Source: a virus
Reading direction: 5' to 3' (one strand)
IMG/VR virus record: IMGVR_UViG_3300015371_000224
Coordinates: 1 to 20,573 of that record
Length of the DNA: 20,573 nucleotides
Part shown: positions 1 to 4,946 of the stretch, piece after piece
Numbering within the stretch: position 1 is the stretch's first letter
How the letters are laid out: each line of letters begins with the position of its first letter
Translations under genes and position numbers: made by a program
The notes under the pieces: model-generated
The model's input: only the letters and a program-made list of their open reading frames with translations
Databases searched by the model: none
Told to the model about the DNA's origin: nothing

Positions 1-4
1 CATG

Positions 5-225
5 CTATGCCGTCCCCAACCACGCCCACGCAACTTGAGCCACAGCAACCCGCAGCCACCCAAAGCTTGTCAATCCGACCCATCCTGATCCGTAGCGTCG
101 CTGCGTTACCCACCACCATCCATCCCAAACCGAAGCCAAGCCCGCCGGGCCTACCCGACCACCTCCCACCGCCAGCCCTACCGTCCCCAGCCTACCCACC
201 GCTACCCACCGCTACCCACACCGAG
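5..225 (+). repeat. Period-5 C-rich array A (NNN-NY units)
   Basis: From about base 7 the sequence can be cut into five-base units, a variable triplet plus a dinucleotide that is usually CC (otherwise mostly GC, with CT, TC, GT, AC or TT). From 11 to 131 every fifth base (11, 16, 21 ... 131) is a pyrimidine: C except T at 36, 86 and 106. A single six-base step at 132-137 shifts the phase by one, and the pattern continues (142, 147, 152 ...) to about 222, with G only at 147 and 157. The end contains a ten-base motif, gctacccacc, in near-perfect triplicate (191-220). The period is seen directly; its role is unknown. The tract lies just upstream of the ribosome binding site of the next gene, and a related tract lies at 820-1030. 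The left end may lie outside the window. Confidence 0.85.
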
Positions 226-234
226 GAGAGTACT

Positions 235-819
235 ATGCTAATAGATGTAACAGTCGCTGGTATCACCAGCTTGATGGTTGATAAGTTCACAGTCGATTTG
301 CTTGACAAAGGCCCCAAGTCCACCAACAACGGTGAAGAACTGCCACCCAAAGAACAGGCCGCCATGCGGCTATACGTTGACAATCAGGGCGTCCCTATAT
401 GGCCGGTTGACAACCTGTTGGCTTGCATCATCGACGCAGGTCGATACATCAAGGTTGGTAAGCGTCAATTATCAACCCGTGACACCACTATAGTCACGTC
501 CTTCCTTCGTATCACTGAGGAGTTTCTGCTAATCAAAAGTGAAAAAGGCTGGCGTGTTGATGCCCGTGGCGTTGTGAACCAAGCGACCAAAGGCAGGCAC
601 GTTGCTTTCAGGCCCATGTTTGATGATTGGCGTTTGTCATTCACACTGGACATTGATACGAAGGAAGTCAGTGAGAAGGTTACCCGTGAATTGATTGACC
701 GGGCTGGTAAAGCCATTGGTATAGGTGTCATGCGGCCATCAAGAAAAGGCCGTTACGGTATGTTTAAAGTTGAACTATGGAAGTCGAAGGATCAGCCTGT
801 GGCTGGCCCTGATCACTAA
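235..819 (+). CDS. Conserved phage protein, possible RAMP/Cas7-like fold
   Basis: Predicted 194-residue protein. ATG 235 is chosen because GAGGAGAG (223-230) sits just upstream. The frame is open back to base 7, but that extension is Pro-rich and is simply the C-rich array read in triplets. Near the N-terminus is a hydrophobic/Gly stretch (VAGITSLMVD), then RLYVDNQGVPIWPVDNL. A central W-R-V-D-A-R strand follows, then RPMFDDWRLSF, and a Gly-rich loop near the C-terminus (AIGIGVMRPSRKGRYGMF). Strands plus a C-terminal Gly-rich loop resemble RAMP-superfamily proteins such as Cas7. I also recall similar uncharacterised proteins in many phages. The RAMP assignment is an inference from pattern only; no catalytic residue is evident. 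The gene is flanked on both sides by the period-5 arrays, and array B begins at the base after its stop codon, which suggests a functional link. Confidence 0.8.
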   Translation: MLIDVTVAGITSLMVDKFTVDLLDKGPKSTNNGEELPPKEQAAMRLYVDNQGVPIWPVDNLLACIIDAGRYIKVGKRQLSTRDTTIVTSFLRITEEFLLIKSEKGWRVDARGVVNQATKGRHVAFRPMFDDWRLSFTLDIDTKEVSEKVTRELIDRAGKAIGIGVMRPSRKGRYGMFKVELWKSKDQPVAGPDH

Positions 820-1030
820 CCGAACCATGCTGAGCCCAGCCTTCCCTACCCGGACCTTAGCAAACCGACACACACCAAGCTTGGCCGACATATCGCTGGC
901 CGATCCAAGCCGACGTACACCATCCCACGCTCTCGTACCCCGTACCAAGCCCCCGCTAGCCCAAGCCGATCCAGCCCAAACCGGTCCCGTCCCTTCCTGC
1001 CTGCACCTTTCCAAAACAACCCAAACCAGA
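820..1030 (+). repeat. Period-5 C-rich array B (NNN-NY units)
   Basis: Starts at the base after the upstream stop codon. In the register 820, 825, 830 ... the second base of each unit (821 to 946) is always C or T, mostly C; T occurs at 831, 881, 891, 916, 931 and 936. One extra base at 950-952 shifts the phase. After it CC recurs at 961, 966, 971, 976, 981, 986, 991, 996, 1006, 1011, 1021 and 1026. The organisation matches array A: similar length (about 210-220 bases), one slip roughly 60% along, and the shared pentamer ATGCT near the start (827-831; 2-6 in array A). The array ends just before the AGAAAGG ribosome binding site of the small gene at 1043. No function is known to me. Confidence 0.85.
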
Positions 1031-1042
1031 AAGGCCTACACA

Positions 1043-1183
1043 ATGGACCCCCACGAAACCCGCATACCCACACAGGCTGAGATAGACGCATACAAAAAGA
1101 TGATAGAAGCCGAAAAGGCAAAGCAAACGTATAGTAAACCGTCAGTGGTCGGCGGTCTGCCCAATGGCACTGACAAACCGTAG
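1043..1183 (+). CDS. Small hypothetical protein (46 aa)
   Basis: ATG 1043 follows AGAAAGG (1028-1034) at a usual distance, in the same leader style as the gene at 2386 (GGAAAGGCTACAAAC before ATG). The product begins MDPHETRIPTQAEIDAYKK and continues with a Lys/Glu-rich helical stretch and a Gly/Pro-containing tail; it is soluble and highly charged. I do not recognise a family. The frame is open far upstream, but that part is array B and shows no coding character. Because array B forms the whole leader, this gene may share its transcript with the RAMP-like gene. Confidence is moderate because the gene is short. Confidence 0.55.
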   Translation: MDPHETRIPTQAEIDAYKKMIEAEKAKQTYSKPSVVGGLPNGTDKP

Positions 1184-1525
1184 GGTGGTGGCAGCAAAGG
1201 CATAAGTCCACCACTACGCACTACCATGGGGAACCAACGCAGTGCAGCCCTAGTCCACTAATTTCCTTTTGAGGGTGTTGGTAGCTGTCCGTCACACAGC
1301 TTCGAAGCAAGGAAGGCCTTCCGTAGGACGGTGCAGGGAGGTGACCTAGGGGGCTGGCTCCACTCGTTGAGAGCAGTACTTCAGGTCGAGGACTACCTTC
1401 CATACTTCTCAGTAGAAGTATGGGGGTAGGTGTAGCTATCGCTACTCCTGGTCCTTCGACCTAAAAGGCTTCACCACTGTTGAGGTAGTTTAAGCTACTA
1501 CTTCGAGTTAGAAGGAAAACGAACT
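1184..1525 (+). other. Non-coding stretch rich in inverted repeats
   Basis: About 340 bases without a convincing gene. Inverted repeats seen by eye: GTGGTGG/CCACCAC (1185-1191/1208-1214), CTACCA/TGGTAG (1221-1226/1279-1284), AGCTGT/ACAGCT (1283-1288/1296-1301), the palindromes GCTTCGAAGC (1299-1308) and GGAAGGCCTTCC (1311-1322), CTGGCTC/GAGCAG (1354-1360/1371-1376), the nested fold at 1383-1462, and GAGGTAG/CTACTTC with one G-T pair (1482-1488/1498-1504). CAGCCCTAG (1245-1253) can also pair over a distance with CTAGGGGGCTG (1346-1356), which competes with the hairpin at 1354. Such density suggests a structured RNA or a long regulatory 5' leader for the gene at 1526. I found no match to tRNA, tmRNA, RNase P or a riboswitch known to me. 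Confidence 0.5.
1383..1462 (+). ncRNA. Candidate structured RNA: three-way junction
   Basis: An outer stem pairs AGGTCGAGGAC (1383-1393) with GTCCTTCGACCT (1451-1462), with one bulged T. Inside, arm 1 has a ten-base-pair core, CCATACTTCT/AGAAGTATGG (1400-1409/1414-1423) with loop CAGT, and extends through G-T pairs to TACC/GGTA (1394-1427). Arm 2 is AGGTGTAGC/GCTACTCCT (1428-1436/1441-1449) with loop TATC and one T-T mismatch. Almost every base is paired, with the two arms directly abutting. It is tRNA-sized but lacks a T-arm TTCRA loop and a CCA end, and it lacks hammerhead core motifs. The small loops argue against loop-loop kissing as in purine riboswitches or phi29 pRNA. The fold is seen in the sequence; expression and role are unknown. 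Confidence 0.55.
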
Positions 1526-3410: not shown

Positions 3411-3878
3411 ATGATGATAGACTACGCAACTGCAGCAGAGGTCATCAAGCGGTTATCCCCGCATGGCTCCCCTAACGGTATAGGGCTGCTTGATGCCCGG
3501 CTGGGTGACCGTCAGATCGTTCAAATGGAATGTCATAATCATTCCTCCACTAATTATACTTTGGTAATAGAAGTCCGTGGGCAACCGATGCTGCAGTTCG
3601 GCATTGGTCCAAACGGTGCTGTCTTGTGGAAACCCAGCCCAGGGAATGAATTGTTGGTGCGCCGATTTGATTTTTTTGATATTAAAATCGTACCAGTTCC
3701 AATACTGCCCTGCTTCGCTGGTGAACTCTATATCACCAGCAATATTGAAATGGATGGCCGTAAACGGAAAAAGTACTTCCTTGAACGTTTTATGTGGATC
3801 ACGGGTGTCGCACAACGCACCAGCACTGACGCTATGGACTTGAGGGATGTGCACATACTACAAAACAGGAGCGTATGA
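3411..3878 (+). CDS. Hypothetical protein (155 aa)
   Basis: Two adjacent ATGs (3411, 3414) follow the terminator T-tract, with no ribosome binding site between. The frame is open back to 3354, but that part is the hairpin region. The protein begins MMIDYATAAEVIKRLSPHG and contains alternating strands (NYTLVIEVRGQPMLQFGIGP; RRFDFFDIKIVPVPILP), suggesting a soluble alpha/beta domain, with a basic stretch DGRKRKKYFLERF near the C-terminus. No family is recognised. Expression must come either from read-through of the terminator or from a start inside the terminator region. Codon-like composition and the tight junction to the next gene support it as real. Confidence 0.65.
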   Translation: MMIDYATAAEVIKRLSPHGSPNGIGLLDARLGDRQIVQMECHNHSSTNYTLVIEVRGQPMLQFGIGPNGAVLWKPSPGNELLVRRFDFFDIKIVPVPILPCFAGELYITSNIEMDGRKRKKYFLERFMWITGVAQRTSTDAMDLRDVHILQNRSV

Positions 3879-4076
3879 ATGGCTTACTTCGTAAGTGCCA
3901 GTTGTCAGGGTGAGCGTTGCTATTGTGGGCAGCCTGCCGAACATAAAGTGGAGGAAACCATATTTGATGATGACCCTGACCCTGTTAGACATCCACTCAC
4001 ACAGTATGTTTGCCACTTCCATTTTCGTAGGATTATGGGTCCTGCCGCTGAACGTAGCCCCGGTGAAAAATCATGA
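3879..4076 (+). CDS. Small Cys/His-rich, probably zinc-binding protein (65 aa)
   Basis: ATG 3879 starts at the base after the upstream stop, with AGGAGCG (3867-3873) as binding site. Cys9, Cys14 and Cys16 near the N-terminus and Cys45 with His46 and His48 (QYVCHFHFRRIMG) form a plausible zinc site separated by an acidic loop (EETIFDDDPDPVRHP). Proteins with this CYCG ... CxxHF pattern are familiar as small phage products, but without a function that I know. The stop overlaps the ATG of the next gene (ATGA). Confidence 0.75.
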   Translation: MAYFVSASCQGERCYCGQPAEHKVEETIFDDDPDPVRHPLTQYVCHFHFRRIMGPAAERSPGEKS

Positions 4077-4354
4077 CTGTATTGACAATCTGGAAATCTA
4101 TCCTTGAACCCGTCGGGTTACAGGAAATTGACGTACCCATGGGATCAGAGTTCCTCTGTACCCATACGCAAAATGAGATGTTGTGTGTATGGTACAAGTG
4201 TGATCCTACCGCACCCAAGGAACAACGACGGGTGGCCATTGTTGGGACTGGTCACTCGGCTGAAACTGAGGGGGCTGACTACCTTGGCAGTTGTCTGCTA
4301 ATGGGCGGACGGCTTGTCCTCCACGTATTTGTTTGGGCTGCTTTCAAACACTAG
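4073..4354 (+). CDS. DUF7352-like protein (93 aa)
   Basis: ATG 4073 overlaps the previous stop. The sequence follows the DUF7352 plan: TIWKSILEPVGLQEIDVPMG at the N-terminus, then LCVWYKCDPTAPKEQRRVAIVGTGHS, and LVLHVFV at the C-terminus. This is a small beta-rich domain widespread in phages and often found near replication or morphogenesis genes, with no proven activity. Length (93 residues) fits the family. Call made by recognition of the RR-x-x-IVGTGH and HVF motifs. Confidence 0.8.
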   Translation: MTVLTIWKSILEPVGLQEIDVPMGSEFLCTHTQNEMLCVWYKCDPTAPKEQRRVAIVGTGHSAETEGADYLGSCLLMGGRLVLHVFVWAAFKH

Positions 4355-4363
4355 GGGCTGAAC

Positions 4364-4498
4364 ATGCAACAACAAAAAGAGTACGGATTCAAATACGTGC
4401 ACTGGTTCTTCACGATCCTGGCCATCATCGTATTTGCGTTTTTTCTGTCACTGCTGGCGGTATCACCAGTACTGATCAAGATGCTCGTTGGCTCATAA
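4364..4498 (+). CDS. Single-pass small membrane protein (44 aa)
   Basis: Starts MQQQKEYGFKYVHW, followed by one strongly hydrophobic segment (about residues 15-36, FFTILAIIVFAFFLSLLAVSPV), then LIKMLVGS. A weak AGGGGC precedes the ATG. The start lies nine bases after the previous stop. Too short for most gene finders, but the clear membrane segment and operon spacing support it. The topology is probably N-in with a short tail outside. It overlaps the 3' end of the opposing minus-strand gene by 23 bases. Function unknown. Confidence 0.6.
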   Translation: MQQQKEYGFKYVHWFFTILAIIVFAFFLSLLAVSPVLIKMLVGS

Positions 4499-4946
4499 AC
4501 AGTTGTGCCAACCCTGACTGCAGGTAACCGGGGAAGGCAGCATCAAACACCGTAGCCATACGGGGCAGGTGTGCCACCATTGTCCGCATACTGATTGGCA
4601 GGCCACGCCCCTTAAGGTCATCAGCTAGCAGTTGCAGCAACCGCCCCAGCAACGCCAGCCCGTCAACTTGCCGGGCCATGCCGCCGCTGAAGTTGGTTTC
4701 AGCAAACGCCACAAAGCCCGGGGCGTTTTGCTTGAACACCTGAGCGGTGCTAGCCGGTAGGGCATAGGGGTAGTTTAAAAGGGCCTGTAAAGCCCTAAAA
4801 AGCCATGCCTGAGCGTTTTGCGGCTCATTGGCCTTATTGGGTGCCCCTTCAAGCAATAACCTGCCAGCCAGCGTTTGAATGACTTTCAAGTCCTGCTGGC
4901 TTAGGCTAGGCAGTGCTCCTAAAATTTGGTCCTTCGTGACAGGCAT
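4476..4946 (-). CDS. Hypothetical helical protein, only minus-strand gene (156 aa)
   Basis: Reading right to left, TGAGGAG lies six bases before the ATG at 4946, an excellent binding site. No + strand gene covers this interval. The product is mainly helical: MPVTKDQILGALPSLSQQDL, a Leu/Ala-rich middle (LFRALQALLNYP), then RQVDGLALLGRLLQLLADDL and ISMRTMVAHLPRMATVFDAA. The C-terminal PISMRTM ... FPGYLQSGLAQL motif recalls uncharacterised phage proteins. Its orientation against the whole operon suggests separate control, from a divergent promoter that shares sequence with the + promoter at 4936-4965. It could be a regulator, but no DNA-binding motif is clear. Confidence 0.8.
   Translation of the reverse strand: MPVTKDQILGALPSLSQQDLKVIQTLAGRLLLEGAPNKANEPQNAQAWLFRALQALLNYPYALPASTAQVFKQNAPGFVAFAETNFSGGMARQVDGLALLGRLLQLLADDLKGRGLPISMRTMVAHLPRMATVFDAAFPGYLQSGLAQLFMSQRAS

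What the first reader, a model, noticed from the sequence alone, without database searches (positions are those of the whole stretch)
5..225. Long array with strict five-base period (array A)
From 11 to 131 every fifth base is C or T, 22 of 25 being C, and the phase then shifts once and continues to ~222. Ordinary coding or intergenic DNA does not do this. Five bases is half a helical turn, so cytosines lie on alternating faces of the DNA; in RNA they would be regularly spaced anchor points. I know of no described element of this form.
Basis: seen in the sequence. Interest (0 to 1): 0.9.

Follow-up and report, generated by a model that had tools for sequence, protein, structure and literature searches.

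The report
Phage VIPR guide-RNA arrays, C-type variant
The odd five-base rhythm is the guide-RNA array of VIPR, a recently described CRISPR-like weapon that phages carry, and this copy appears to use C's where almost all others use G's as the fixed marks between its targeting letters.

Summary
Window 1-222 is a run of about 42 CCNNN pentamers, and a twin array lies at 818-1037. Both flank one gene (235-819). That gene belongs to the Vipr family (PDB 36pp, 'SUSP1 Vipr protein'; phrog_4652), and its model folds like CRISPR Cas7/Csm3 RAMP proteins. The locus is therefore a VIPR system, the RNA-guided, phage-encoded DNA-recognition system described in PMC13142463 (2026). It is not a DNA helix-face element and not unprecedented. 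About 120 viral contigs returned by an array-pattern scan mostly hold the same arrays. In Vipr loci found by protein alone, 122 of 140 have period-5 arrays; 120 of these are G-led on the vipr sense strand and none is C-led. The window is the exception: its sense strand reads CC, and the opposite strand does not read GGY either. Its Vipr nests inside a G-scaffold clade (80 viral members, all with Asp at the G-loop position) but has Val there. A distant Vipr group (L151, Microcystis phage Mae-JY09) also has CC arrays, so a C scaffold arose at least twice. I conclude: VIPR guide arrays, confidently; a C-scaffold variant, probably. Targets, transcripts and strand are untested.

The parts
1..222 (+). 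Array A: about 42 CCNNN units, one +1 phase shift near 170; putative vrRNA (guide) array upstream of vipr; cut by the contig edge
223..229 (+). Probable ribosome-binding site (gaggaga) directly after array A
   Evidence: sequence
235..819 (+). vipr gene, 194 aa, RAMP/Cas7-like fold; G-loop 'GIGVMRP...GRYGMF'; Val165 where most Viprs have Asp/Glu
818..1037 (+). Array B: about 43 CCNNN units, one +1 phase shift near 960; putative vrRNA array downstream of vipr
1043..1183 (+). Small ORF (46 aa) with no family match; could be an accessory gene, unproven
1184..1525 (+). Non-coding stretch with strong predicted RNA structure; relation to VIPR unknown
   Evidence: -127.7 kcal/mol, z -2.1; no Rfam or phage match

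Best explanation
The pentamer arrays are the guide-RNA arrays of a phage VIPR system whose effector is the gene between them. By analogy with the published system (inferred here, not shown), transcripts of the arrays are coated by Vipr subunits that each grip one pentamer. The fixed scaffold bases are held by the protein and the variable bases of each unit pair with double-stranded DNA, read with a one-base skip, so that a competing phage's genes are bound and repressed. What is particular here is that the scaffold on the vipr-coding strand is CC instead of GG(Y). I infer that this Vipr has been re-specified to hold a C scaffold; the Asp-to-Val change in its G-loop is a candidate cause. The confidence below is for VIPR guide arrays; the C scaffold on the sense strand is about 0.6-0.7.
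For: The gene abuts both arrays and matches PDB 36pp 'SUSP1 Vipr protein' through profile A1 at E 1e-39 and phiSUSP1 directly by tblastn, 24% identity, E 2e-4. All 47 aligned members hit phrog_4652. The AF2 model (pLDDT 88) matches Csm3/Cmr RAMP subunits at E 1e-6 to 1e-7. An array-only search returned loci in which ORF clustering picked out this same gene family next to the arrays in 55 loci, blind to any annotation. Searches by protein alone gave 140 Vipr hits (about 7 duplicated): 122 exceed the 99% null for period-5 arrays, 120 of them G-led on the sense strand and none C-led. The window scores CC 14.0 and GG 6.5. The base before CC is a purine in 26/54 units, where an antisense GGY array predicts about 90% (p 1e-14). 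The Vipr tree nests the window in a G-scaffold clade (SH-aLRT 99), and well-supported branches force two origins of CC. Asp165 is kept in 80/80 clade members and replaced by Val in the window. Published mechanism: PMC13142463.
Against: No transcript, no target and no accessory (vap) gene was shown for this locus. A decoded-target search against 7.3 Mb (both strands) of held phage DNA found nothing above chance. The CC scaffold is less strict (25/42 and 29/42 exact CC units) than GG in typical arrays, so decay is possible. Acidic-residue loss is not unique to CC systems: Viprs with R, T or A at that position still have GG arrays. The purine after CC (39/55) is partly produced by the choice of phase, so a 'CCR' motif is not established.
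Confidence: 0.93

Rival explanations
1. VIPR arrays transcribed from the opposite strand: the guides keep a GG scaffold, but the arrays are inverted relative to vipr.
For: GG is on the minus strand; one partial locus (L155) has GGC/NN antisense to a Vipr fragment.
Against: The third scaffold base is not conserved: a purine precedes CC in 48% of units instead of about 90%, and T precedes it too rarely for a GGA scaffold. Loci found by protein alone never show this orientation (0 of 122). The weak T and Y columns of the minus strand fit no G scaffold seen here.
Confidence: 0.22
2. A decaying VIPR locus: formerly G- or C-scaffold arrays now drifting, with Vipr under relaxed selection.
For: Long end branch of the window Vipr (1.08 against 0.34 for its sister); imperfect scaffold.
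Against: The ORF is intact and keeps the invariant W132, G158, G162, G175 and the near-invariant R126. Drift from GG to CC at about 60% of units in two separate arrays is not expected without selection.
Confidence: 0.12
3. A DNA-level element (protein-binding or bending element with half-turn spacing), unrelated to a guide RNA.
For: Five bases is about half a helical turn (general knowledge; one search shows the period).
Against: The arrays accompany one RAMP gene family across phages and bacterial genomes; published vrRNAs co-purify with Vipr (PMC13142463).
Confidence: 0.02
4. A simple pentanucleotide satellite expanded by slippage.
For: Tandem period-5 units.
Against: Fixed C's with highly varied other positions is the reverse of a decayed satellite; the tandem-repeat finder sees only weak short arrays.
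Confidence: 0.01

Closest known systems
VIPR (Viral Interference Programmable Repeat), PMC13142463, 2026
   Same: Single small RAMP gene (Vipr) in a phage, flanked by tandem pentamer arrays with two fixed bases and variable bases in between; arrays upstream and downstream of the gene.
   Different: Published scaffold is GGY/NN 'or a related consensus (fig. S17)'; here the vipr sense strand reads CC. Arrays here are about 42 units without visible tails (published vrRNAs: 9-16 units plus a structured tail; staggered overlapping arrays are also mentioned). No vap gene recognised.
CRISPR-Cas class 1 RAMPs (Csm3/Cmr4/Cas7)
   Same: Fold of the predicted protein; G-loop; periodic grip on a guide RNA.
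   Different: No CRISPR repeats, no other cas genes, single short RRM-type protein, 5-nt instead of 6-nt period.
TIGR-Tas and other phage RNA-guided systems (from memory)
   Same: Phage-borne tandem guide arrays.
   Different: Different protein family; not compared here by sequence.

Membership tests
VIPR | Vipr protein (ancestral single-RRM RAMP homolog) | tested here: met
   36pp at E 1e-39 with profile A1, phiSUSP1 by tblastn, RAMP fold by Foldseek
VIPR | Long intergenic regions flanking vipr that hold tandem pentamer repeats | tested here: met
   arrays at 1-222 and 818-1037
VIPR | GGY/NN scaffold on the vrRNA | tested here: not met
   sense strand CC; neither strand gives GGY. The source allows 'a related consensus' (fig. 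S17, supplement not readable here), so this lowers the claim of a standard VIPR, not of VIPR
VIPR | Structured invariable 3' tail on each vrRNA | tested here: inconclusive
   no repeated tail seen in either array; arrays fold no better than shuffles; staggered arrays are known
VIPR | Vipr accessory gene (vap) | tested here: inconclusive
   only a 46-aa ORF follows array B; upstream side is cut by the contig end
VIPR | vrRNA expressed and bound by Vipr | not testable with these tools
   needs RNA data
VIPR | NN letters match dsDNA targets with a 1-nt skip | tested here: inconclusive
   no match above chance in 7.3 Mb (both strands) of held sequence
CRISPR-Cas | CRISPR repeat-spacer array and other cas genes | tested here: not met
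   no repeat of CRISPR type; no other cas hits among the genes scanned

The most novel reading that the evidence does not exclude
A C-scaffold VIPR: a Vipr that grips CC-marked pentamers instead of GG-marked ones. It evolved inside a G-scaffold clade together with loss of the conserved G-loop acidic residue, and independently of a second C-scaffold group (L151 and Microcystis phage Mae-JY09). This would show that the scaffold alphabet of the code can itself be changed.
Probability: 0.6. Interest if true: 0.75.

Novelty: new variant of a known kind. Interest (0 to 1): 0.6.

Why it matters
VIPR is proposed as a forerunner of CRISPR. How Vipr tells scaffold bases from targeting bases is not described in the paper's main text. 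A natural pair in which the scaffold switched from G to C within a clade, with a matching candidate residue change, makes that question directly testable and would give a second guide RNA set that should not cross-react with G-scaffold systems.

Tried and rejected
Rfam search of 1-2000 and of the whole window found nothing relevant. Folding of the arrays gave less structure than shuffles. Single-sequence search for the window Vipr in viral contigs found nothing, and the alignment of all Viprs was too diverse to search with; a clade alignment worked. Plasmids: no match. Target search under three choices of variable pair and skips 0-3 in 7.3 Mb gave only chance-level matches, up to 19/22; the perfect 3-skip hits are the arrays themselves. 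I first suspected that loss of Arg124 explains the C scaffold; rejected, because Ala or Cys is common at that position in G-scaffold members of the same clade. A 'CCR' third-base motif was considered and not claimed, because the choice of phase depletes C after CC. A TRAP-like or Rho-site reading of the array (C-rich, unstructured) was dropped once the Vipr association was found. Supplementary figures of the VIPR paper could not be read, so whether fig. S17 already lists a CC consensus is unknown.

Full report
What is there. The window is a 20.6-kb fragment of an uncultivated phage from IMG/VR that carries a replication module: DnaB-like helicase, second helicase, primase, methyltransferase, clamp, DNA polymerase, clamp loader. 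At its left end lie array A (1-222), a 194-aa gene (235-819, preceded by gaggaga), array B (818-1037), a 46-aa ORF (1043-1183) and a strongly folding non-coding stretch (1184-1525).

The bases at 11, 16 ... 131 are 22 C and 3 T. C autocorrelation peaks at 5, 10, 15 and 20. A dynamic-programming parse gives about 42 units per array, with 25 and 29 exact CC units against 15 and 12 in shuffles, and one +1 phase shift each. An unconstrained cyclic model gains 40.6 and 49.1 log units against at most 7.6 for shuffles.

How the family was found. Relatives sharing the replication genes do not carry the gene or the arrays, apart from one orphan array in G015. Clustering the ORFs near those arrays, with no annotation used, gave one dominant family: 61 ORFs in 55 loci, abutting the arrays, and including the gene between arrays A and B of the window. 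The family alignment shows V.I.G..PL..H, a mid P...AA block and a C-terminal RxRP..W...AG...G.GDxRP...GRF motif.

What the gene is. A profile of that family finds one solved structure, 36pp, 'SUSP1 Vipr protein', E 1e-39. All 47 members match phrog_4652, whose function is not annotated. The predicted structure of the window protein (pLDDT 88) matches CRISPR Csm3/Cmr subunits. The paper behind the name (PMC13142463) describes VIPR: a phage-encoded RAMP with guide RNAs made of 9-16 pentamers, GGY fixed and NN variable, which read double-stranded DNA with a one-base skip and repress competing phages.

What is odd about this one. In Vipr loci, arrays read GG on the strand that codes vipr (80 of 83 loci; average G90 G91 Y90 N N). 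To remove the bias of the array-based search I collected Viprs by protein alone: 24 loci in bacterial genomes, 36 from profile searches of about 1,500 genomes (7 overlap the former) and 80 viral loci of the window's own clade. Of these 140, 122 exceed the 99% null for period-5 dinucleotides (null from 167 stretches of relatives' genomes); 120 are G-led (GG 68, GC 48, GT 4) on the sense strand and none is C-led. The window reads CC on the sense strand (14.0 against 6.5 for GG). It is not simply an inverted G array: GGY on the other strand would put a purine before CC in about 90% of units, and the observed value is 26/54 (p 1e-14).

Is it a one-off? A tree of 73 Viprs places the window inside a clade of G-scaffold Viprs (SH-aLRT 99; sister L384, support 89; quick method, so the exact sister is provisional), while a second, distant Vipr group has CC arrays: L151, with short CC runs separated by a conserved CATAATTGAC, and Microcystis phage Mae-JY09 (L314). 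L151's identification rests on reading the sequence (CC score 8.0 is below the null threshold, because its runs are short; the cyclic model gains 63 against at most 12.4), and Mae-JY09 scores 10.4. Well-supported branches force at least two changes to CC. All 80 clade members keep Asp at position 165 of the G-loop; the window has Val, L151 Gly, and Mae-JY09 reads 'IGALRS' there (translated). The link is suggestive only, because Viprs with R, T or A at that position still use GG. Arg124 is not informative within the clade.

Mechanism. Shown here: two pentamer arrays around an intact Vipr gene; family, fold and genomic association; a C scaffold on the sense strand. Inferred from the published system: arrays are transcribed, bound by Vipr one pentamer per subunit, and the non-scaffold bases read target DNA. 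Not shown: transcription, strand, guide boundaries, tail, accessory gene, targets.

Verdict. The finding is real and not ordinary DNA, but it is a member of a kind described in 2026. Its probable C scaffold makes it a variant. Whether the supplement of the VIPR paper already lists such a scaffold could not be checked.

Noticed in passing
window 1184-1525: Non-coding stretch with strong predicted RNA folding (-127.7 kcal/mol, z -2.1), no Rfam or phage match; could be a guide tail, a leader or an unrelated RNA.
   Followed up: partly
L151 1266-1625: CC-scaffold array made of short runs separated by a conserved CATAATTGAC, next to a divergent Vipr; looks like a repeat-separated guide array.
   Followed up: partly
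L314 3188-3620 (Microcystis phage Mae-JY09): CC-led pentamer array downstream of a Vipr-like gene annotated as hypothetical protein, in a named phage.
   Followed up: partly
L174, L184, L186, L226, L260, L263: Arrays with a GGA/NN scaffold, third base A instead of pyrimidine; all but L184 have a Vipr in the fetched stretch.
   Followed up: partly
L319 downstream of vipr, L316 3078-3640, L318 2866-3545: Vipr-like genes followed by pentamer-like stretches with other apparent scaffolds (CGC-like by eye; G-C/A-A and G-T/A by cyclic model); scaffold diversity seems wider than GGY.
   Followed up: partly
L045 4576-4724 (G015): Orphan GGY-type array in a relative of this phage with no Vipr found in the fetched 54.8-kb contig.
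   Followed up: partly
L389 downstream of vipr (about 3570-4570): Several guide arrays each separated by a near-identical hairpin (CCCAGTAGCCGTTTGACCGCGGCTACTGGGATTT), a clear example of repeated guide tails.
   Followed up: no
L065 3752-4207, L093 4047-4505, L101 4654-5109 and others: Second gene family often beside the arrays (motif HxxFEWDDxxAA), 15 loci; candidate vap.
   Followed up: no
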